Positions 31,086-40,751 of a stretch of DNA of 40,751 bases are shown here, one piece after another. The position numbers and the translations under genes are program-made. Each line of letters begins with the position of its first letter. Position 1 is the first letter of the stretch. The stretch covers positions 1-40,751 of the forward strand of contig JAJZAD010000007.1 of NCBI GenBank assembly GCA_021799575.1, in the 5' to 3' direction. The notes beneath the pieces are model-generated. The model saw only the letters and a list, made by a program, of their open reading frames with translations. It had not been told where the DNA came from and did not search any database. The DNA comes from a bacterium. GTDB lineage: Bacteria > Patescibacteriota > Saccharimonadia > Saccharimonadales > UBA4665.

Positions 31086-32846
31086 TTATGCTATGGGCCC
31101 ATAGCTCAGTCGGTTAGAGCACCTGCCTTTTAAGCAGGGTGTCGTGGGTTCGAATCCCACTGGGCCCTCCATATTACCTTCGTCTTCAAAAGCAAGCTTA
31201 AAGACCTCGCTCAGCCCTGTTATTTTTCGAATCTCTGGTGTTTCACAAGTTAAATCCGAGTAAACCGGCGCCATGTTGAATAAAACACCGAAAAAGTTAG
31301 CTTTTTTAAGTGGATCAATCTGTTTGAGCAGCAGATAATCCAGGTGTTTCACAAAATATTTTACGTAAGCCATTATGACCTTAAGATCAGTAGGCTCTTC
31401 TTTCTTTTCTTCTAGCTTTTGCTGTTCCAGCTCGGCTATGTCTGCTTGGAGCTTCATAATATCCTCCTCCATATATTTAATTGCTACTTCACTGCTCAAA
31501 ACCTTGATTTTATCGACCAGTACTTTAACCTGGGTTTTAAGTGACTCAATACGTTTATCAATTGCTTGCCCGTCCTGCATCATGGCAGCTTGGCGTTTTT
31601 CCCACTCGGCCATAACCGCCTTCTCAAGAGCATCAACATAGCTAGGGCTCACTTGTACGCGCTTTATAAAGTTTTCTATAACCGCTTCAAATTCTTCTTT
31701 GGGTATACGTAAATAATGATCCCCCCTGCTGCAGTGATATGCAGGATAATATTTTCCAAGCTTTCCTCTAGCCGCACTACCGCTGAACGGCTTACGGCAA
31801 GTAGGACATAATACTACCTTTTTATACGGGTAGTCCGGATTGATAACCTTCTTATTCTTTTGAAACTCAGGCAACGGACGCCTATATATACTTACTTCTC
31901 CTGTTGGATCTTCTGAGATTATTATTTTGCCGCGGTTGGCTTGATTAAATGTCTCTATGGAAACTAAACCTTTAAACTTACATTTGATAGGTTTATCGCC
32001 AGTCCACTTCTCGCAGTTAATACCCACGTAGATAGGATTCTCCAGATGCCTTAGCAGTCCCTTAAGGTCAAGTTCAACACCGCCCTTCTCTCCCAGTATT
32101 TTAGATGGATCTTTTTTATCTCTAATGACGTCTATCCGTGTCTTATAGCCAAGCCGGTTGATTTCTTCAACTATCTGGTTATCGGATAAAGTGCTATGGC
32201 ACCTGAGATCGAACATTTTAATAATAAACTGGGCCTCATTCGGATTGGCTACCAATATGCGACGTTTACCGTTTGGCGTCTCTATTGAAGTACTATCATA
32301 ACCGTATGGTTGCCGGCGCATCCAATAACCCATTTGCGTGTAGCGGATCTCAGCACCGATCATCCGACTCATGATGTCGCGCATCTCGTCTTTGGCCCGT
32401 TCAGCTTCAAGTATTTCGGATTTCTGCGTTGGTGAGTAAACGCTCCATTTATATTCAAAACCCAGGTGTTCTAGCGTATTAACCTTCTGCGAGCTAATAA
32501 TCCCGTAAATGTCGATCAGCCTGACGTTTGACTTATCTAGCTGCATCTTTAGATGATCATATGAATATGAACCACCACGGGTAAAGCGGTCAATCGACTT
32601 GATAATAAACAGCTGGGTATCGTTCTTCTTGTTTTTGCAGTAATCAATAGCTTCCTGCATCGGTTGCTCTTCTTTAAATGCGGACTCAAAAAAAACAAAG
32701 AACTTTTTAATAGTTATTCCCTTCGACTCCGCAAAGCGCACTATCTGCTCGCGCTGTGCTTCTGGTGAATCACCATCACGCCCCTGTTTGTCTGTTGAAA
32801 CACGAATAGCAGCCACTGCATTCAAGTTTTCTAATTGACCCTGCAT
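31086..32846 (-). CDS. Large serine recombinase (site-specific integrase)
   Basis: A 586-residue recombinase. The N-terminal resolvase domain has the catalytic serine in AAIRVSTDKQG (about residue 17) and later IKSIDRFTRGG. A Recombinase domain follows (GYWMRRQPYGYD, IYVGINCEKWTG), then a zinc ribbon (VVLCPTCRKPFSG and YHCSRGDHY) and a long C-terminal coiled coil (residues about 400-480). The conserved protein seems to end near LSEVFKLAFEDEGNM. The last ~25 residues (containing VGFEPTTP) are translated from the antisense strand of tRNA-Lys, and the stop lies 7 bp beyond it in chromosomal DNA. It probably integrates and excises the element at this tRNA. Confidence 0.93.
   Translation of the reverse strand: MQGQLENLNAVAAIRVSTDKQGRDGDSPEAQREQIVRFAESKGITIKKFFVFFESAFKEEQPMQEAIDYCKNKKNDTQLFIIKSIDRFTRGGSYSYDHLKMQLDKSNVRLIDIYGIISSQKVNTLEHLGFEYKWSVYSPTQKSEILEAERAKDEMRDIMSRMIGAEIRYTQMGYWMRRQPYGYDSTSIETPNGKRRILVANPNEAQFIIKMFDLRCHSTLSDNQIVEEINRLGYKTRIDVIRDKKDPSKILGEKGGVELDLKGLLRHLENPIYVGINCEKWTGDKPIKCKFKGLVSIETFNQANRGKIIISEDPTGEVSIYRRPLPEFQKNKKVINPDYPYKKVVLCPTCRKPFSGSAARGKLGKYYPAYHCSRGDHYLRIPKEEFEAVIENFIKRVQVSPSYVDALEKAVMAEWEKRQAAMMQDGQAIDKRIESLKTQVKVLVDKIKVLSSEVAIKYMEEDIMKLQADIAELEQQKLEEKKEEPTDLKVIMAYVKYFVKHLDYLLLKQIDPLKKANFFGVLFNMAPVYSDLTCETPEIRKITGLSEVFKLAFEDEGNMEGPVGFEPTTPCLKGRCSNRLSYGPIA
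31095..31171 (+). tRNA. tRNA-Lys(TTT), attachment site of the integrated element
   Basis: Acceptor GGGCCCA/TGGGCCC, discriminator T and encoded CCA. The anticodon stem CCTGC/GCAGG closes loop CTTTTAA (anticodon TTT). The T stem GTGGG/CCCAC is perfect. The AT-rich element begins directly after the CCA, and the recombinase gene reads antisense through the whole tRNA. I found no second copy of the tRNA 3' end in the window, so the far junction lies outside or shares only a very short core. Confidence 0.97.
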
Positions 32847-32852
32847 AACCTT

Positions 32853-32999
32853 TTACCCCACTGGTTTTTCGTCTTGTAAACCTAGGATTCGGTCAACAAT
32901 AATATTAGCTAGCAATGTCACCCGCTTATCACTGGACAGATAGTACTCGGGGAGCAAATCTTTGTCTTTTTTATTCTTAGAGCCCATCGATCGAGCCAT
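32853..32999 (-). CDS. 48-residue protein encoded just upstream of the recombinase
   Basis: ATG 32999 to TAA 32853 encodes 48 residues: a basic N-terminus (ARSMGSKNKKDKD) followed by LPEYYLSSDKRVTLLANIIV and DRILGLQDEKPVG. It has an excellent ribosome-binding site (GGAGGG, 4 nt before the ATG). The recombinase ATG lies 6 nt after its stop, so both are on one transcript. A small gene in this position could be a recombination accessory or directionality factor, but no family is recognised. Confidence 0.7.
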   Translation of the reverse strand: MARSMGSKNKKDKDLLPEYYLSSDKRVTLLANIIVDRILGLQDEKPVG

Positions 33000-33010
33000 T
33001 TTACCCTCCG

Positions 33011-33072
33011 TATCAGGATTTGGACTAACCTGATATGGTTATATCATACTATCCTTATCGGGTTAGTTGCAA
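33011..33072 (-). promoter_or_regulatory. Promoter and operators of the recombinase operon
   Basis: On the minus strand -35 TTGCAA (33072-33067) and -10 TATGAT (33048-33043) have an 18-bp spacer. An 11-bp inverted repeat with one mismatch flanks the -10: CTAACCTGATA (33025-33035) and TATCGGGTTAG (33056-33066). A third related half-site TATCAGGATT lies at 33011-33020. Placement in the spacer and at +1 suggests repression of the integrase operon by an unidentified regulator. Confidence 0.5.
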
Positions 33073-33120
33073 GTACTTTTTAGTTCGTATTTCCAACCAT
33101 TCATCTGCGTGGTTATCCAT
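33055..33120 (-). CDS. Possible 21-residue ORF upstream of the recombinase operon
   Basis: ATG 33120 to TAA 33055 encodes MDNHADEWLEIRTKKYLQLT plus Arg, preceded by AAGGAAA at 6 nt. It overlaps the recombinase promoter, so it would be read by an upstream transcript. It could be chance. The remaining stretch to 33400 holds no convincing gene. Confidence 0.22.
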   Translation of the reverse strand: MDNHADEWLEIRTKKYLQLTR

Positions 33121-33348
33121 AATTTCCTTGGTCTTATTTATACTAATGGCTCCTCATCAGAGCATGCGCGGTGTTGTCCAGTTTGTTATTTACGGCGTTC
33201 AGCCTTTCAGATTCTTCTATGCGTAGTTAAGTTCATTATTAAAGGTCAGTTTTAAGTAGTAATTGTTAAATATTCTAGAGGTTGTGTGGTTACATGTCTT
33301 AGCTAGTTACTCGTTATAATTTTGATTCGCAATAGGTATATGATCATA

Positions 33349-33412
33349 TTTTCCACACAAAATCCGCTAATAAATCCAAATATTTTTGGATATCCACAGG
33401 ATAATATATACT
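33349..33412 (+). promoter_or_regulatory. Lectin gene promoter region with inverted repeat and DnaA-box-like 9-mers
   Basis: TATACT (33407-33412) is a likely -10 box, about 24 nt before the ATG at 33437. Upstream lie a perfect inverted repeat ATCCAAA-TATT-TTTGGAT (33374-33391) and two 9-mers one base off the DnaA box: TTTTCCACA (33349-33357) and ATATCCACA (33390-33398). The repeat could be an operator; an element replication origin is a weaker possibility. Confidence 0.4.
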
Positions 33413-33436
33413 AAAAGCATAAGAAGAATATTTCTT

Positions 33437-34879
33437 ATGAATAATTATATAAGAAGATCGGAAAATGTTTTTAGTATTACAAAAAGTCGTATTAGAAACT
33501 ATTTTAATTTAACTAGAAATCATATTAATAAATACGCCGCCATCTTTTCTGCAACAATAGCGTGTCTAATAATTGCTATTCCTTCAACTACTTCGGCTGC
33601 CATGTACTCTCAAGTCATATACTCACCAGCAGATCCTCCTGCTGGATATCTAGCTACTCCTAATAATGCGGGAGGTCTTGCTTGGATGCTTGATAATGCC
33701 ATATCAAGCGATTTAAGTGTTTCAACTGCTGGCGATTACTGCAACTACTATAATACAAGCGGGCCAAATTCGATGGTCTATCAGAATAACTTATCCCAAA
33801 GTAGTGTTACTGGGTTTAGTCCAAGTTCACCTTTATATTACTGGCAAGAAGGAGACCAAAACAATAATAGTGTTTGTCAGGCAGAACAAGGTACTTGGGG
33901 ATTTAAAATAAATAATCCAGAGGGCAACGATTGTACTACAGCTGGTAAAGTTTGCGGGATGCAGCATTTTGCTCGTTTTAGCGGTACGTATTATCCATGG
34001 AGTTCTTATGGAACTGCGCCCGAACCAGCTCTGACTTTTAGTGTTAACGTAAAGCCTCAAACAGATAACTATGCATCCGGCACCGATGGTTACTTCTGCC
34101 CTATTCTTAAAGATAGTTACTCTGGAAATTATATCGAATATTGTTTTGTAAACTGGCAGACAGGAGGGGGATACCCGAATATATCTCAATTTGATCAAAT
34201 CGGTATGAACGGATGCGGGACAACTTCAGGAGGTCAAAATGTCGCCACTATATATACAGCATTTGGACCCGATTTAACTTGGTCCACCGAGAGAGCTGGC
34301 TCAGCTAATACCTTTGGAAATATACCTAATAATGTTACTCAAACTGCATCAATTACCGGTCCTAACTTGCTTAATGCAATTAATCAAATTGATAATTCTC
34401 CTCCGATACCCAATGGTTGTGGCTGGAATCTATCAAAGAATGTAGCCAATTATCAGGTTATTGGATTTGAGGATGGCATGGAGGGCGGAGGTTATTCCAC
34501 ACTAGGAGAGTCTGTTTCTAATGAAAATATGAGTATTACTACTGACAGTCTATTTGCGGGAGACACATTACAATCTGGAAGTACTATGTATTCATCAAAT
34601 TATGTAGCTGGTAGTAGTGGATATAGAATAACAATGCAGACTGATGGTAATCTAGTGGTCTACAATTACGCTAATTCAGCTTTATGGCAATCACATACAT
34701 CGACTCCGGGATCGTATGCAGTAATGCAGACTGATGGTAATCTTGTCGTATATAATCCATCCAATATTGCTCAATGGTCATCGGGTACCTCTAATGCAGG
34801 ATCCTACGCTATAATGCAACCAGACGGTAACTTTGTAATATATAAAGGTAACGTGTATCAATGGCAAAGTGGTAGCTAA
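33437..34879 (+). CDS. Secreted protein with C-terminal bulb-type mannose-binding lectin domain
   Basis: About 480 residues from ATG 33437, preferred over an ATG 51 nt upstream that lies before the -10 box. A long basic N-region precedes a hydrophobic signal segment (AAIFSATIACLIIAIPSTTS) and likely cleavage near SAAM. The central ~320 residues are Cys-, Gly-, Asn- and aromatic-rich with no family I recognise. The C-terminal ~110 residues are a B-lectin domain with three repeats about 30 residues apart: MQTDGNLVVYN twice and MQPDGNFVIYK, matching the QxDxNxVxY mannose-binding motif. It is probably released or surface-held and binds glycans. Codon use is AT-rich. A terminator follows. Confidence 0.85.
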   Translation: MNNYIRRSENVFSITKSRIRNYFNLTRNHINKYAAIFSATIACLIIAIPSTTSAAMYSQVIYSPADPPAGYLATPNNAGGLAWMLDNAISSDLSVSTAGDYCNYYNTSGPNSMVYQNNLSQSSVTGFSPSSPLYYWQEGDQNNNSVCQAEQGTWGFKINNPEGNDCTTAGKVCGMQHFARFSGTYYPWSSYGTAPEPALTFSVNVKPQTDNYASGTDGYFCPILKDSYSGNYIEYCFVNWQTGGGYPNISQFDQIGMNGCGTTSGGQNVATIYTAFGPDLTWSTERAGSANTFGNIPNNVTQTASITGPNLLNAINQIDNSPPIPNGCGWNLSKNVANYQVIGFEDGMEGGGYSTLGESVSNENMSITTDSLFAGDTLQSGSTMYSSNYVAGSSGYRITMQTDGNLVVYNYANSALWQSHTSTPGSYAVMQTDGNLVVYNPSNIAQWSSGTSNAGSYAIMQPDGNFVIYKGNVYQWQSGS

Positions 34880-34957
34880 AATCCAAATCAAGGATAGACT
34901 AACAAATTTTACGTCACTACTTTTACGAGTCTATCTATAGAACAATAATCATTTACT

Positions 34958-34981
34958 AGTACGCCTATCGTTAGGCGTACT
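34958..34981 (+). terminator. Terminator after the lectin gene
   Basis: AGTACGCCTA (34958-34967) pairs perfectly over 10 bp with TAGGCGTACT (34972-34981) around loop TCGT, followed by ATAGTTTGTTTTG. It lies 78 bp past the stop codon. Confidence 0.75.
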
Positions 34982-35085
34982 ATAGTTTGTTTTGTACTCT
35001 GTTATTTTACATAGTTAATGTTTCTATTATTATATGTATATAAGGATGTAGAAATAATATAACTTAATCTACTACATTTAAATCT

Positions 35086-35880
35086 ATGAACACTAATCCT
35101 AAATACAGAAGACCCCTAAATCCCAATCAAATCAATACTTTATTATTTCTATTTAAATTTCGTTTTATTTCTTCTCATCTTCTATCAGCAGCCTTTGGCA
35201 ATAAATCCCGGAGGACCGTACAACAAACACTTCAGATCTTAGAAGCTCAGGGATTCATCGCTAAACACTACGACTCTTCATATAAACTGCAGGGACGCCA
35301 GGCTACCTATTATTTATTGCCAAAGGCGGTGCGCGAACTTAAAGCCAGATATTCACTTAACGAATCCATATTAAGAACTTACTTAAGAAATTCATCTTTA
35401 AGTGAAGGCTTTATAGATCATCATCTTGATATAGTTAAGACCTATATAAACCTAAAGAACAGTTATCCTAAGCAGTTTCATATTTTTACAAAGTATGAAC
35501 TTGCAGATTTTGACTATTTTCCAAACCAGAAGCCGGATATATATCTTAGAAGAATCAAAGGCAACCATAACAAACCAAATGAGTATCTTTTAGATATTTA
35601 TGAAGATACACCGTTATTTGTTATCCGTAGAAGAGTAGATGGCCTAATAAACCATTTCGAAGCCAACGAATGGGCAGGAGCTTACCCCATATTACTGTTT
35701 GCTTGTCCCGACTCAAAAGCAGAAAACAGAATCCTAAACTTCGCTTTAAAAAAGTTAGACGGCTCAGAACTCACCGAACTATCAATATATACGACTACAG
35801 GGAAGGCACTGCTGTCTACCAGCTCAAGCAAAAACATTTGGAGCAACATAGAAAACCCAGAGCAATTGTTAATATTATAA
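35086..35880 (+). CDS. Replication-relaxation-like winged-helix protein
   Basis: A 264-residue protein. The N-terminal ~85 residues form a winged helix: LNPNQINTLLFLFKFRFISS, then RRTVQQTLQILEAQGFIAKH and a wing ending in YYLLPKAVREL. The C-terminal part has an alpha/beta region with KPDIYLR, LLDIYEDTPLF and YPILLFACPD. The arrangement resembles replication-relaxation/MobC-like proteins common on mobile elements of actinobacteria and CPR bacteria. A restriction-like fold in the second half (D-x-x-x-Y-x-D) is possible. It may control replication or mobilisation of the element. No SD is visible. Confidence 0.65.
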   Translation: MNTNPKYRRPLNPNQINTLLFLFKFRFISSHLLSAAFGNKSRRTVQQTLQILEAQGFIAKHYDSSYKLQGRQATYYLLPKAVRELKARYSLNESILRTYLRNSSLSEGFIDHHLDIVKTYINLKNSYPKQFHIFTKYELADFDYFPNQKPDIYLRRIKGNHNKPNEYLLDIYEDTPLFVIRRRVDGLINHFEANEWAGAYPILLFACPDSKAENRILNFALKKLDGSELTELSIYTTTGKALLSTSSSKNIWSNIENPEQLLIL

Positions 35881-35884
35881 TTGG

Positions 35885-36115
35885 CTACACCTGAACCCAA
35901 GTTTTATCTTTGAGTACTTTTGTGATAGATTCTTCATCTACCCACATGCCGTTCCACTCTTTTGTTTTTTCAATCTCTTCATAGTGAAAGTCAATTCGAT
36001 AACCCCACTTATCTAGATCTTCAAAGAAAGCCGCCTCGGTAATTCTTCCCATCCCAGTAATACTTTTTTCTTCGAAAATAACCCATTGTAAAGGAAAAAA
36101 TTTTGGATCACTCAT
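35885..36115 (-). CDS. Hypothetical 76-residue acidic protein
   Basis: A 76-residue protein rich in Glu, Lys and Trp (WVIFEEKSITGMGRI, then EEIEKTKEWNGMWVDEESIT). No family is recognised. A minus-strand TATAAT (36127-36122) ends 6 nt before the ATG, another leaderless arrangement, which supports it being a real gene. It converges with the replication-relaxation-like gene, 4 bp away. Confidence 0.55.
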   Translation of the reverse strand: MSDPKFFPLQWVIFEEKSITGMGRITEAAFFEDLDKWGYRIDFHYEEIEKTKEWNGMWVDEESITKVLKDKTWVQV

Positions 36116-36183
36116 ATCCCAATTATAACTCCTCTTTTTATAGTTCAGAAAGAGCAGTTTAACGCCATACTCAGGGCTTTACT

Positions 36184-36444
36184 CTACTGAGAGATAACCA
36201 GCTCTACCCAGTCAACCTTACTTAGTACTTCAAACATCAGATCTTTCCAAAGCGTAATGGAAGTATCTTCAAGAAGTTCATTAAAGTACTGGTTAACTTC
36301 TTTAGCCTGCTTTAAAGAATTACCTTCTCTTAGTCTGGCAATTAAGTAGTTAAAGCTGATCTCATCATTGTTCAGCCAGACATTAACTAACCATGTCTCT
36401 CTATTCTTCCAACCGTTGTAAGTGGATACTACTTTATCGTTCAT
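36184..36444 (-). CDS. DUF7249-like small protein
   Basis: An 86-residue protein with YNGWKNRETWLVNVWLNND near the N-terminus, the signature of a small family found in phages and mobile elements (NG-x-KNRETW-x-V-x-LW-x-NND). The function is unknown. It overlaps the preceding gene by 4 bp (ATGA) and also has a purine-rich site GGAAAGGAAG upstream. Confidence 0.7.
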   Translation of the reverse strand: MNDKVVSTYNGWKNRETWLVNVWLNNDEISFNYLIARLREGNSLKQAKEVNQYFNELLEDTSITLWKDLMFEVLSKVDWVELVISQ

Positions 36445-36635
36445 GATTCACTTCCTTTCCGACCACACATAGGGCAGTCATAGTTATGAGTAATAACTCG
36501 TATCAGCTCCAAAGATGAAGTTGAGTCCAGGTTGTCCTGCAAGTCATAGTACTGACACGCACATACTTCCTTTAGAGCTGCTTTTTCCAGCGCCATTCTT
36601 CCTATCTGACGCCTTGATAAATAAGCTACGTTCAT
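36441..36635 (-). CDS. Small protein with a C-terminal CxxC motif
   Basis: A 64-residue protein. The N-terminal part is a helix (RRQIGRMALEKAALKEV), followed by CAC and a C-terminal YDCPMCGRKG that could bind zinc together with the upstream Cys pair. It has a perfect AAGGAGG ribosome-binding site (36650-36644) and is preceded by a long hairpin-forming leader. First gene of the two-gene minus-strand operon. Confidence 0.6.
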   Translation of the reverse strand: MNVAYLSRRQIGRMALEKAALKEVCACQYYDLQDNLDSTSSLELIRVITHNYDCPMCGRKGSES

Positions 36636-36652
36636 GGTTTTAACCTCCTTTA

Positions 36653-36763
36653 CCTTTACGTAACGGTGAAGCCTAACTACCCCGCAGCTACGAAGGCAAG
36701 GTGGAGACGAAGTACTACCTTGCCGAAGTAGATCGGGGAGTACAATGGGAGACTACGTAAAGG
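36653..36763 (-). promoter_or_regulatory. 111-nt nested inverted repeat, candidate structured leader RNA
   Basis: Arms pair in register: CCTTTACGTA (36653-36662) with TACGTAAAGG (36754-36763), 10 bp perfect; CCCCG (36680-36684) with CGGGG (36734-36738); CTAC (36688-36691) with GTAG (36728-36731); GGCAAGGT (36695-36702) with ACCTTGCC (36717-36724). A symmetric GAA/GAA internal loop separates the last two, and the apical loop is 14 nt. The outer arm ends 3 nt before the AAGGAGG ribosome-binding site of the 36635 gene, so in the mRNA it would be a 5' leader. A replication or transfer origin is the main alternative. It is not protein-coding. Confidence 0.55.
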
Positions 36764-36905
36764 AAACTAGTTATTTGTGTTTTAAGGCTAGGAAACTATG
36801 CTATACAGTTCTTATGCATATAAGACTTTAATAAAATATCGTGACGACAAATAAGATTTAAAAAGTTACAATATTACTCTTGTCTTACCATAAGCAAGAA
36901 TAAGA

Positions 36906-36911
36906 TATAAT
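36906..36911 (+). promoter_or_regulatory. -10 box of the restriction-modification operon
   Basis: Perfect TATAAT with a weak TTGTCT (36880-36885) 20 bp upstream. The first usable ATG is at 36926, so the leader would be about 8 nt. A TTG at 36911 overlaps the -10 and cannot be the start. Confidence 0.5.
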
Positions 36912-36925
36912 TGGATTGTAGGGCT

Positions 36926-37780
36926 ATGCTAAGTACAATAGGAAAAACTAATCAAAAATATATTCCTGCTACCTCAAAAGGACAGCCGTTTCTAAAATGG
37001 GCTGGTGGCAAAACTCAACTCTTACATGAATTGTTGCCAAGAGTCCCCCAAAAGTACAATACGTACTATGAGCCTTTTATTGGTGGGGGCGCGCTATTCT
37101 TTGCCATATCACCTAAAAAAGCTGTTATAGCAGATATAAATGATGACCTAGTAAACGCATACATTGTAGTTCGAGACTTTCCTGAACAGCTCATTGAACT
37201 TTTAGCAGAATACGTTAACGACAAAGAGTTCTTCTATAAAATCAGGGAACAAGATACTAACAACCTTCAATCAATCGAACAAGCTGCAAGACTGATTTAT
37301 CTAAACCGAACATGTTTCAATGGGCTTTATAGGGTAAATAAGAGCGGTCAATTTAATGTTCCTTTCGCAGGATACAAGAACCCAAACATAACTCAAGTTG
37401 AGAGGATCCTAGCAGATAGTAACTTACTGCAAGAAACTCAGATATATAATGTCGGCTTTGATAAGGTCTTAGACCGCGCTAAGAAAGGTGACTTTATATA
37501 CTTAGATCCTCCTTATTATCCAAAGAGCGTTTATTCAGATTTCAAAAGATACAACAAAGAACAGTTTCATAAAGATGACCACATAAGGTTAGCCGAGCTG
37601 TATAATAAGCTCACTGAGAGAGGTTGCAAAGTCATGCTTTCAAACTCAGACACTCCGTTCACTTGCGATCTATATAAGAGGTGGCATGTAGACAAAGTTT
37701 ACGCAAAAAGATTAATCAATAGAGATGTGTCAAAACGGGGTGAGGTAACAGAAATTATCGTCACCAATTATGACTACTAA
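36926..37780 (+). CDS. Dam-like D12-class N6-adenine DNA methyltransferase (M1)
   Basis: A 284-residue methyltransferase of the alpha group. SAM-binding motif I-like KWAGGKTQLL at the N-terminus and EPFIGGGALFF, then ADINDDLVNAY and the catalytic DFIYLDPPYYP, closing with GEVTEIIVTNY. The overall arrangement is that of Dam/DpnM-type enzymes, which methylate GATC. I chose ATG 36926 because an upstream TTG is within the -10 box. It overlaps M2 by 11 bp. Together with M2 it should protect both strands of an asymmetric site. Confidence 0.9.
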   Translation: MLSTIGKTNQKYIPATSKGQPFLKWAGGKTQLLHELLPRVPQKYNTYYEPFIGGGALFFAISPKKAVIADINDDLVNAYIVVRDFPEQLIELLAEYVNDKEFFYKIREQDTNNLQSIEQAARLIYLNRTCFNGLYRVNKSGQFNVPFAGYKNPNITQVERILADSNLLQETQIYNVGFDKVLDRAKKGDFIYLDPPYYPKSVYSDFKRYNKEQFHKDDHIRLAELYNKLTERGCKVMLSNSDTPFTCDLYKRWHVDKVYAKRLINRDVSKRGEVTEIIVTNYDY

Positions 37781-38813
37781 AGATGCAGTAAAAATATTAT
37801 CGAGATACCCTAATACAAGATATATGGGAAGCAAAAGAAAGCTAATTCCCATTATTGCTCAAGTTGTTAAACAGTTAAGTCCAAGCACTGCTCTCGATGC
37901 CTTTTCGGGTAGCGGTTGCGTGGCTTACCTGTTTAAGGAAATGGGGATTAAGGTCACGGCCAATGACTTTTTGAAGTTTGCCTATAATATAGCCGACGCC
38001 TCGATTGCTAATAGTCACACGAGGCTTACCGATGAAGATATTGATTTACTCATAAACAACGAAGGCAACAATAATACGTTCATAAGAGACCACTTTAGAG
38101 GATTGTATTTTAGCGATGAAGACAATGCATTTTTAGATAGCCTATGGTGGAATATTAGCAAGCTTAAAGACAATCATAAGGAATCTCTTGCCTTTGCAGC
38201 CATAAGCAGAGCATGTATTAAGAGGAGGCCAAGAGGCATGTTTGCCTATACAGGTTTTCGCTATGATGATGGCAGAAAGGACTTAACCCTAACACTTAAA
38301 GAGCATTTCTTAAAAGCTGTTCAAGAGTGGAATGAGACAGTTATAGATAATGGAACTGTCTGTTCGGCATACAATAATGATGTCTTCGAACTAAAAGACA
38401 ATAATTACGACCTCGTATATATAGACCCTCCCTATGTAAGCAACCACTCGGATAATGACTATACCCGTAGGTATCATTTTGTTGAAGGATATATGACATA
38501 CTGGCAAGGGGTCAAAATACAGGAACATACTAAAACTAAAAAGATAGAGAGCATTCCTTCCAGGTTTAGTTCTAAATCAACTATATATGGCGCTTTCGAC
38601 GATCTTTTTGGTATGTTTCCAAAAAGCACTTTGCTAATTTCATACTCCTCAAACTCAATACCAACGAAGGAGGATATGATTAAACTACTTAAGAAGCACA
38701 GAAGGGATGTAGAAGTCCTAGAAATAGATTATAAGTACTCTTTTGGTACTCATGGACATAAAATAGGAGATAACAATAACTCAGCTTCAGAGTATTTGTT
38801 TATAGCAAAGTAG
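37770..38813 (+). CDS. D12-class adenine DNA methyltransferase (M2)
   Basis: A 347-residue methyltransferase of a second D12 subgroup. Motifs: RYMGSKRKLIPIIAQV, LDAFSGSGCVAYLFKE (SAM loop), TANDFLKFAYNIA and the catalytic DLVYIDPPYVSNH. It is only distantly similar to M1, as expected when two enzymes modify the two different strands of a non-palindromic site. The endonuclease ATG follows its stop after 1 nt. Confidence 0.9.
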   Translation: MTTKDAVKILSRYPNTRYMGSKRKLIPIIAQVVKQLSPSTALDAFSGSGCVAYLFKEMGIKVTANDFLKFAYNIADASIANSHTRLTDEDIDLLINNEGNNNTFIRDHFRGLYFSDEDNAFLDSLWWNISKLKDNHKESLAFAAISRACIKRRPRGMFAYTGFRYDDGRKDLTLTLKEHFLKAVQEWNETVIDNGTVCSAYNNDVFELKDNNYDLVYIDPPYVSNHSDNDYTRRYHFVEGYMTYWQGVKIQEHTKTKKIESIPSRFSSKSTIYGAFDDLFGMFPKSTLLISYSSNSIPTKEDMIKLLKKHRRDVEVLEIDYKYSFGTHGHKIGDNNNSASEYLFIAK

Positions 38814-38814
38814 T

Positions 38815-40497
38815 ATGAAAACCTGGAACCTAGGAAACACTACAGTAAGAAATCCCGAGCGAATAAAAGCAGGTCTTAGAATTTTACAAGAGCAATTCGA
38901 AGGTAAAGTATTTGACCTAAGTGCACAAAGAGAGTTCTTCGAATCTTTGCTGAGTGCAGGATTGATAGAAGGCGACCCACCTCAGGAAGCCAATAGGGCT
39001 GCTTCTGGTCGTAAATGGCAAAGTGTATGTAACAAGCTTGGTCTGATACAGCGTAGCACAAGGATAAACGGCATTATTACTGTTACAGATGCAGGTAATG
39101 CGTTGCTAAGTGATGACACATTGGAAAGTGACATTTATTTACGACAGCTGCTTAAAGTGCAGCTACCATCTCCAACAGAATCAAACCTTGATAACGCATC
39201 AATACATCCTTTTTACCTAGTTTTAGCGATCAGTGTGGAGCTTAAAGAACTATGCATGGATGGCCTATCAAAGGAAGAGATTGCCTTATTCGTGCAATCA
39301 TCTACTAACGACAGACAGGTTGACGAAATTGTTGAAAAGATTAAAAAGTATAGGTCACTAAGAGATGCTAAGGAAGGGAAAGTTAATAAGAGAAGGTTTT
39401 TCCTAGAACAGCTTGCAAACAAAACTCATGAACTTTATGGTGACGCTGCAAATGTACAAAAAGCAAGAACCTTACAAGATTACAGCGATACTACTGCTAG
39501 ATACTCTGCTATTACTGGCATTTTTGGTATGGGTCGACAATCCATAGTCATTAAGGAAGATCAATATAATCTTGCTAAAGCCATAGTAACGACTGGACCT
39601 CCCCCTATACTTAGCGGTGATGACTTTTTAGATATGTTTCACAACCCAATGTTACCAGCATTACCAACTGACAATACCGATTTTCTACTTAGAGATATAT
39701 CCACTCTAGTAAAGAGACTTGATGAACTATCAAAACAGACAGGTTCAACTAAAGAAAACCGGATTAACGTTAGGTCGGCAGACATACTGGCACTTAAGCG
39801 AAGACGTGAAGATCTTGAACAAGAACTTATTTCGTTAAAGGAAATACAATTCTATCACGCCCAAAACAATCCAGAGCAAGTAGAGGATATTAGAAACTTA
39901 TTTGAGAGTATAAAAGCCAGAGAGATTATTGGAGGCAGTGATTACAGGCCAGCCTGGGCGGAATGGGGCGTCTGGCGTATATTTTTATCCATTAATACCA
40001 TATCAAATCCAGTTAATCAAACTCGTGGATTTAAATTAAACTCAGAGTTATATCCTACTCATCACGCAAAGGCTGGAGCGGCAGACCTTTGTTTTGAATA
40101 CAAGAATAATATAGTAATTCCTGCCGAGGTGACACTCGCAACTAATGAAAGACAGTTCAATATGGAAGGAGAAGCGGTGAAGTTTCATGTCAAGTCAGTT
40201 GTAGAAGCAAATCAAGGCAGTACTGTAATAGGCGTATTTACGGCACCTGAAATTCACGTAGCCACAGCTCATGAGTTTTTTGGAGCTGAATTTTACAGCC
40301 AGAAAATGGGAAGAGTTGTAAAGCTAGACATAGTTCCACTAACATTTGAGCAAATTGAGTCATTATTGCCAGGACAAAGCAACTCCTGCAATAACGGAGA
40401 TCAGTTACTAAGTAAGTTAAAAGACCTAATCAGACTTAAAGACCGCTCTAAAGACGGATCTATATGGCTACAGCAGATAAATGATAATCTGATGTAA
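38815..40497 (+). CDS. AlwI-family type II restriction endonuclease
   Basis: A 560-residue protein whose N-terminus (RNPERIKAGLRILQEQFEGK), size and C-terminal block identify it as AlwI-like. AlwI cuts GGATC at a distance on both strands. The likely catalytic core is AGAADLCFEYKNNIVIPAEVT (Asp then Glu-Val-Thr) followed by MEGEAVKFHVKSV, a variant PD-(D/E)xK pattern. The N-terminal ~170 residues resemble a winged-helix recognition region (WQSVCNKLGLIQ, TVTDAGNALL). Placement directly behind two adenine methyltransferases fits. Exact specificity is inferred from family, not shown. Confidence 0.85.
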   Translation: MKTWNLGNTTVRNPERIKAGLRILQEQFEGKVFDLSAQREFFESLLSAGLIEGDPPQEANRAASGRKWQSVCNKLGLIQRSTRINGIITVTDAGNALLSDDTLESDIYLRQLLKVQLPSPTESNLDNASIHPFYLVLAISVELKELCMDGLSKEEIALFVQSSTNDRQVDEIVEKIKKYRSLRDAKEGKVNKRRFFLEQLANKTHELYGDAANVQKARTLQDYSDTTARYSAITGIFGMGRQSIVIKEDQYNLAKAIVTTGPPPILSGDDFLDMFHNPMLPALPTDNTDFLLRDISTLVKRLDELSKQTGSTKENRINVRSADILALKRRREDLEQELISLKEIQFYHAQNNPEQVEDIRNLFESIKAREIIGGSDYRPAWAEWGVWRIFLSINTISNPVNQTRGFKLNSELYPTHHAKAGAADLCFEYKNNIVIPAEVTLATNERQFNMEGEAVKFHVKSVVEANQGSTVIGVFTAPEIHVATAHEFFGAEFYSQKMGRVVKLDIVPLTFEQIESLLPGQSNSCNNGDQLLSKLKDLIRLKDRSKDGSIWLQQINDNLM

Positions 40498-40541
40498 TTA
40501 AGGGAAAAATAGCTATCATCGATTAAGAACTACAGTAACGT

Positions 40542-40547
40542 TATACT
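40542..40547 (+). promoter_or_regulatory. -10 box directly before the truncated ORF at 40554
   Basis: TATACT ends 6 nt before the ATG at 40554, the same leaderless spacing as at 1037, 5816 and the vapB genes. Confidence 0.4.
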
Positions 40548-40553
40548 ATCGAC

Positions 40554-40646
40554 ATGGACGATGAATACGCCTTAAATTTACAAATAGATAAACGATACCT
40601 TGGCAGCGCTGGTGAATATCTAACTGTCAGGCTCCCGATAAAATGA
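40554..40646 (+). pseudogene. Truncated gene cut off by a probable insertion sequence
   Basis: ATG 40554 to TGA 40646 gives 30 residues with KRYLGSAGEYLTVRL. LGxxGEYLV-x-x-L is a common N-terminal pattern of small nuclease-like proteins of mobile elements. The stop codon coincides with the start of TGAACACATT, which may be the end of an IS, so the gene seems interrupted there. Confidence 0.35.
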
Positions 40647-40751
40647 ACACATTGTCTAGCTAGCAAGCAGTACAATACTCGGTAAAGAAGGGAGTTAAAC
40701 TATGCCTGTTGGCAAACACACTGACCCGGCCGTTAAGGCCGAGATTGTTAG
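40644..40751 (+). mobile_element. Left part of a probable insertion sequence
   Basis: The sequence from TGAACAC at 40644 leads into a short non-coding stretch and then a probable transposase gene, as at an IS3-type left end. Only 108 bp are in the window, so no terminal repeat or target duplication can be confirmed. Confidence 0.3.
40702..40751 (+). CDS. N-terminus of a probable transposase (orfA-like), runs off the right edge
   Basis: ATG 40702 follows a purine-rich GAAGGGAG. The visible residues MPVGKHTDPAVKAEIV resemble the start of IS3-family OrfA helix-turn-helix proteins. The reading frame is open to the window end. The assignment is tentative because only 16 full codons are visible. 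Confidence 0.35.
   Translation, partial: MPVGKHTDPAVKAEIV

What the first reader, a model, noticed from the sequence alone, without database searches (positions are those of the whole stretch)
33437..34879. Secreted mannose-type lectin carried on an integrated element of a probable epibiont
Three QxDxNxVxY repeats form a full bulb-lectin domain after a ~320-residue Cys-rich region of unknown family and a signal sequence. Cultured Saccharibacteria live attached to actinobacterial hosts, so a mobile glycan-binding secreted protein could affect host recognition, host range or competition (lectin-type bacteriocins use the same fold).
Basis: partly seen in the sequence, partly recalled or inferred. 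Interest (0 to 1): 0.6.

Follow-up and report, generated by a model that had tools for sequence, protein, structure and literature searches.

The report
Mobile-element-borne secreted mannose-type lectin
A very small bacterium carries, on a piece of mobile DNA inserted at a tRNA gene, a gene for a probably exported protein with an intact sugar-binding (bulb-lectin) domain joined to a 320-residue region that matches nothing searched; it probably helps stick something to another cell's surface sugars, but what the unknown region does is open.

Summary
ORF 33437-34879 (480 aa) ends in a full bulb-lectin (B_lectin/MMBL, PF01453) domain with three exact QxDxNxVxY motifs; an MSA-based model (pLDDT 89) matches monocot mannose lectins (TM 0.75-0.83). 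It starts with a plausible Sec signal sequence (rule-based, no SignalP). Residues 56-372 (8 Cys) are an orphan: no Pfam, NCBIfam, PHROG, PDB, phage or plasmid match, and none in the genomes searched of its order, phylum or Actinomycetota. The gene sits just inside a tRNA-Lys-integrated element with a large serine recombinase, a replication-relaxation protein and an AlwI-like restriction-modification set. That backbone recurs across the bacterial family with changing cargo; no congener has a B_lectin gene. B_lectin proteins are moderately common in the order (19/168 genomes), usually with several lectin modules and other regions. Best reading: an accessory, probably horizontally acquired secreted glycan-binding protein whose lectin aims the orphan region at mannose- or rhamnose-type surface glycans. 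Bacteriocin activity is possible, but LlpA membership fails (one lectin module; NCBIfam score 74 against cut-off 275). The target (host, self or competitor) is not determinable here. New member of a known kind; moderate interest.

The parts
33437..34879 (+). Secreted lectin gene, 480 aa (alternative TTG start 33386)
33437..33601 (+). Predicted Sec signal sequence, residues 1-55 (long basic n-region, h-region about 34-48, cleavage after A54 or A55)
   Evidence: hydropathy and -3/-1 rule; not SignalP
33602..34552 (+). Orphan central region, residues 56-372, 8 Cys (102, 147, 166, 173, 221, 236, 260, 328)
   Evidence: no match; only chance hits
34553..34876 (+). B_lectin / MMBL domain, residues 373-480
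34637..34663 (+). Sugar-binding motif 1, QTDGNLVVY (401-409)
34727..34753 (+). Sugar-binding motif 2, QTDGNLVVY (431-439)
34817..34843 (+). Sugar-binding motif 3, QPDGNFVIY (461-469)
31095..31171 (+). tRNA-Lys(TTT), left attachment site; yebC-tRNA-Lys order conserved in the genus
31086..32846 (-). Large serine recombinase, 586 aa; its last ~28 codons read antisense through the tRNA-Lys
   Evidence: Resolvase PF00239 E 8.5e-10, PHROG integrase E 5.5e-40, relatives
32853..32999 (-). 48-aa ORF immediately upstream of the recombinase, possibly co-translated
   Evidence: sequence
35086..35880 (+). Replication-relaxation (MobC-like) protein
   Evidence: PF13814 E 6.7e-7; a relative is linked to the recombinase in 8 of 8 related elements
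36184..36444 (-). DUF7249 protein, element backbone
   Evidence: PF23907 E 3.6e-11; found in 5 related elements
36441..36635 (-). Small ORF, 64 aa, shared with 2 related elements
36911..37780 (+). Dam-type N6-adenine methyltransferase
   Evidence: PF02086 E 7.3e-63, TIGR00571
37770..38813 (+). Second D12-class adenine methyltransferase
   Evidence: PF02086 E 4e-19, PADLOC MTase_II
38815..40497 (+). AlwI-type restriction endonuclease
   Evidence: PF09491 E 1.4e-61, PADLOC REase_II

Best explanation
An accessory protein gene carried by a tRNA-integrated mobile element. The protein is exported by the Sec route (inferred) and uses its C-terminal bulb-lectin domain, with three intact sites (sequence and model), to bind mannose- or rhamnose-type surface glycans (inferred from family knowledge). 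This holds the N-terminal orphan region, probably a disulfide-containing extracellular domain, against that surface. The likely surface is the host or a neighbouring cell, with the epibiont's own coat as the alternative. The orphan region is the effector or second adhesive part; its activity is unknown. The element supplies mobility, so the gene can be gained and lost between relatives.
For: Lectin domain and motifs; model pLDDT 89 matching mannose lectins. N-terminal signal-like sequence. Relatives in the same bacterial family are also large proteins, mostly with N-terminal hydrophobic signal-like segments, B_lectin modules and other extracellular regions, so B_lectin is used there as a targeting module. 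Element: recombinase overlapping tRNA-Lys; same recombinase family overlaps the 3' end of a tRNA in 9 of 10 relatives; linked replication-relaxation protein in 8 of 8; variable neighbouring genes such as restriction-modification, metal P-type ATPase, glycosyltransferases and a conjugation coupling protein; AT-rich DNA to the right of 33 kb. No B_lectin in 18 congeners. In a cultured Saccharibacterium, envelope proteins with polysaccharide-binding domains, including a lectin-like VCBS protein, were essential and proposed to target host glycans (PMC10633639).
Against: No binding data, host unknown, organism not named by any tool. The second attachment site is not in the contig or elsewhere in the assembly, so the element's right end and present mobility are unproven. 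The long n-region could be an uncleaved membrane anchor. The central region cannot be modelled or matched, so effector or adhesin is a guess.
Confidence: 0.6

Rival explanations
1. A lectin-directed antibacterial protein: the lectin binds a competitor's or host's cell-wall glycan and the orphan region kills or lyses, as in albusin B (B_lectin plus peptidase M15) or LlpA/LlpB bacteriocins.
For: Pyocins L2 and L1 are among the best PDB sequence matches; NCBIfam LLB_putidacin E 1.1e-20 over the lectin part. Single-B-lectin bacteriocins (LlpB) and the B_lectin plus enzyme bacteriocin albusin B exist (PMC6465234, PMC6240691). Linkage to a mobile element and lower GC fit a bacteriocin gene. A related B_lectin protein in the same bacterial family ends in an M15-like His/Asp pattern (G076, read by eye).
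Against: Score 74 against the LLB cut-off of 275; no second lectin module; no recognisable enzyme in the orphan region; no obvious immunity gene beside it (though LlpA bacteriocins need none). LlpA kills through BamA of Gram-negative cells, which an actinobacterial host lacks (general knowledge).
Confidence: 0.15
2. A self-directed envelope or matrix protein: the lectin binds the producer's own exopolysaccharide or cell wall, as a structural or wall-modifying protein.
For: Several related B_lectin proteins lie next to glycosyltransferase-like genes, the cell's own glycan synthesis (assignment by reading).
Against: This gene is on a mobile element rather than in a glycan locus, and no B_lectin gene is found in 18 congeners, so it is not part of a conserved coat.
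Confidence: 0.2
3. A phage- or element-derived protein that acts in the element's own transfer (for example, attachment to recipient cells).
For: It sits between the recombinase and the replication-relaxation gene; predicted viral proteins with bulb-lectin domains exist, including an uncultured Caudovirales protein.
Against: Not conserved in the 8 related elements; no structural phage genes in the visible part of the element.
Confidence: 0.05

Closest known systems
Monocot mannose-binding (bulb) lectins, PF01453: GNA, gastrodianin, SCAfet
   Same: Fold, three QxDxNxVxY sites, one Trp per subdomain
   Different: Bacterial, single lectin domain at the C-terminus of a larger exported protein with an orphan region
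LlpA/LlpB lectin-like bacteriocins (putidacin L1, pyocin L1)
   Same: Bacterial B_lectin with sugar motifs; LlpB also has a single lectin module
   Different: LlpA is a tandem of two modules and LlpB is only a lectin plus a short C-terminal extension; neither has a 320-aa N-terminal region
Albusin B of Ruminococcus albus
   Same: B_lectin module fused to another domain in one polypeptide
   Different: Albusin B has the lectin followed by a peptidase M15 domain; here the lectin comes last and the other region is unidentified
B_lectin proteins elsewhere in the same bacterial family (for example G008, G034, G044, G030)
   Same: Signal-like N-terminus plus B_lectin repeats 27-49% identical to this one
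   Different: Two or more lectin modules, weak NBR1-like Ig match in several, no relative of the central region, no recombinase seen beside them

Membership tests
B_lectin (PF01453) / MMBL domain | Profile score above the curated cut-off | tested here: met
   37.4 bits against 32.4
B_lectin (PF01453) / MMBL domain | Up to three QxDxNxVxY pockets | tested here: met
   three exact motifs
B_lectin (PF01453) / MMBL domain | Beta-prism fold of the monocot lectins | tested here: met
   model pLDDT 89, TM 0.83 to 1xd6
B_lectin (PF01453) / MMBL domain | Mannose or related sugar binding | not testable with these tools
   needs a binding assay
LlpA lectin-like bacteriocin | Tandem of two B_lectin domains | tested here: not met
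   one domain, residues 373-480
LlpA lectin-like bacteriocin | NCBIfam NF033557 cut-off of 275 bits | tested here: not met
   74.2 bits
LlpB lectin-like bacteriocin | Only one B_lectin domain plus ~32-aa C-terminal extension | tested here: not met
   480 aa with a large N-terminal region; the protein ends with the lectin domain
Albusin-B-like bacteriocin | B_lectin followed by peptidase M15 | tested here: not met
   no peptidase match
tRNA-integrated mobile element | Integrase gene at the 3' end of a tRNA gene | tested here: met
tRNA-integrated mobile element | Direct repeat of the attachment site at the far end | tested here: inconclusive
   no second copy in the 16-contig assembly; contig ends inside the element
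Integrative mobilizable or conjugative element | Relaxase or conjugation genes | tested here: inconclusive
   only a replication-relaxation (MobC-like) protein visible; right end missing
Saccharibacteria | Phylogenetic placement | not tested

The most novel reading that the evidence does not exclude
The orphan region is a new extracellular domain (adhesive or lytic) which, aimed by the lectin, sets which cells this epibiont can attach to or exclude, so that host range or competition can be changed by gaining one mobile element.
Probability: 0.12. Interest if true: 0.75.

Novelty: new member of a known kind. Interest (0 to 1): 0.38.

Why it matters
How epibiotic Patescibacteria choose and hold their hosts is largely open. 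A mobile, single-gene, secreted glycan binder would be a concrete accessory candidate that can be tested by binding assays. The element family described here (a recombinase overlapping the 3' end of a tRNA gene, linked to a replication-relaxation protein, with exchangeable cargo) gives a way to find other such accessory genes in reduced genomes.

Tried and rejected
Full-length AlphaFold2 from a single sequence: pLDDT 32, unusable. Relatives of the central region: order, phylum, 12 genomes from contigs titled mostly as actinobacteria plus 346 genomes drawn from the phylum of one of them, PDB, plasmids, phages, Pfam at E 10: nothing. Weak hits were read and rejected as chance: a MurD-like ligase, a repeat protein, an ABC-type permease locus, an antisense GC-rich frame and a Streptomyces plasmid HTH gene at E 1. 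Degenerate DNA patterns built on the GFEDGMEGG motif in viral and genome contigs hit only unrelated phage proteins and chance frames. DUF2793 match at E 0.16 ignored.

Full report
What is there. ORF 33437-34879 (+) encodes 480 aa. The last 108 residues are a B_lectin domain (PF01453, E 3.9e-9); by sequence the nearest solved structures are SCAfet, pyocins L2 and L1 and gastrodianin. Three exact QxDxNxVxY motifs stand at residues 401, 431 and 461, 30 residues apart; 20,000 shuffles never gave even two relaxed copies. An AlphaFold2 model of the domain, made with 18 lectin segments from relatives in the same bacterial family (alignment A1), has pLDDT 89 and matches monocot mannose lectins with TM 0.75-0.83 over the domain. 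The domain has three Trp, one per repeat, in line with the central Trp triad described for LlpA-type lectins (PMC6240691). Coordinates of the model were not inspected residue by residue.

Export. The first 55 residues have seven K/R before a hydrophobic stretch at about 34-48, then Pro49 and TSAA. This fits a Sec signal with a long n-region, or an uncleaved anchor. Cys43 lies inside the hydrophobic stretch and does not make a lipobox (by rule). SignalP could not be run.

Central region. Residues 56-372 are rich in Gly, Asn, Ser and Thr, have few Lys and Arg (7 in residues 55-375), and hold 8 Cys: the composition of an extracellular domain. It has no match in Pfam even at E 10, NCBIfam, PHROGs, the PDB, phages or plasmids, nor in 393 genomes of the order or 380 of the phylum (partly the same genomes). 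Among 346 genomes drawn from the phylum of an actinobacterial genome there was one weak hit, read as a chance antisense frame. These were single-sequence searches, so remote relatives may be missed.

Element. The gene lies 2.3 kb from tRNA-Lys (31095-31171). A 586-aa large serine recombinase (31086-32846, -) overlaps that tRNA so that its last ~28 codons read the tRNA in antisense. The yebC-tRNA-Lys order is conserved in the genus wherever both could be read. The recombinase family was traced: in 9 of 10 relatives (46-55% identical) the gene overlaps the 3' end of a tRNA gene (Lys, Gly, Glu, Leu), including the same tRNA-Lys in congener G062. In all 8 relatives whose interior could be read, a relative of the Replic_Relax protein (35086-35880 here) lies near the recombinase; DUF7249 is shared by 5. 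Neighbouring genes differ: restriction-modification, a heavy-metal P-type ATPase, glycosyltransferases and a TraG/TrwB-like coupling protein were found in the flanks read; the far limits of those elements were not mapped. Here the visible cargo is the lectin gene and an AlwI-like restriction enzyme with two D12 methyltransferases. GC is about 45% left of the element and 35-39% from 33 kb on. The contig ends inside the element and no second copy of the tRNA 3' end exists in the assembly, so the right boundary is unknown.

Relatives of the lectin. B_lectin matches occur in 9 of 93 genomes of the family, this genome included, and in none of its 18 congeners, and in 19 of 168 mostly complete genomes of the order. 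Those read are large proteins (464-801 residues), mostly with an N-terminal hydrophobic segment, several with two or more lectin modules and, in four, a weak NBR1-like Ig match below Pfam's cut-off; several lie next to genes that read as glycosyltransferases. So the lectin module is an ordinary targeting part in these bacteria; the present protein differs in its orphan partner and in sitting on a mobile element.

Mechanism. Shown: intact lectin fold and motifs, element context, absence of B_lectin in congeners. Inferred: export, sugar binding, cell-surface targeting. Guess: what the orphan region does. Bulb lectins in bacteria bind mannose or D-rhamnose (PMC3585409, PMC3916391), and in one cultured Saccharibacterium envelope proteins with glycan-binding domains are needed for epibiotic growth (PMC10633639). 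An adhesive or effector-targeting role at another cell's surface is the best-supported reading; a self-directed coat protein and a bacteriocin are live rivals. Formal LlpA, LlpB and albusin B membership was tested and not met.

Novelty. No paper found in the searches made describes a bulb lectin in Saccharibacteria; concanavalin-type lectin genes in Patescibacteria phages have been proposed to aid attachment (PMC12911398). The finding is real but is a new member of a known kind with one unknown part.

Noticed in passing
window 31086-40751: Family of integrated elements (large serine recombinase overlapping the 3' end of various tRNA genes, linked Replic_Relax protein, often DUF7249) recurring across this bacterial family with changing cargo; not found described in the paper search made.
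   Followed up: partly
window 36911-40497: Complete-looking AlwI-like restriction-modification set with two D12 adenine methyltransferases as element cargo.
   Followed up: partly
L072 7306-8697 (G076): B_lectin protein whose C-terminal part shows an M15-peptidase-like His/Asp pattern, an arrangement like the bacteriocin albusin B; no Pfam match, read by eye.
   Followed up: no
L271 3-758 (G027): Another exported-looking, Cys-containing ORF close to the recombinase/Replic_Relax backbone of a related element; possible alternative surface cargo.
   Followed up: no
L026 and L027, tRNA-Lys flank: Two congeners (G060, G056) carry what read as other, divergent recombinase genes at the same tRNA-Lys, so the site may be an integration hotspot; not tested with a profile.
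   Followed up: partly
window 32853-32999: 48-aa ORF ending a few bases before the recombinase start, with a strong GGAGGG ribosome-binding site; could be a directionality factor.
   Followed up: no
window 40702-40751: Contig ends a few codons into an ORF (MPVGKHTDPAVKAEIV...), so further element genes are missing.
   Followed up: no
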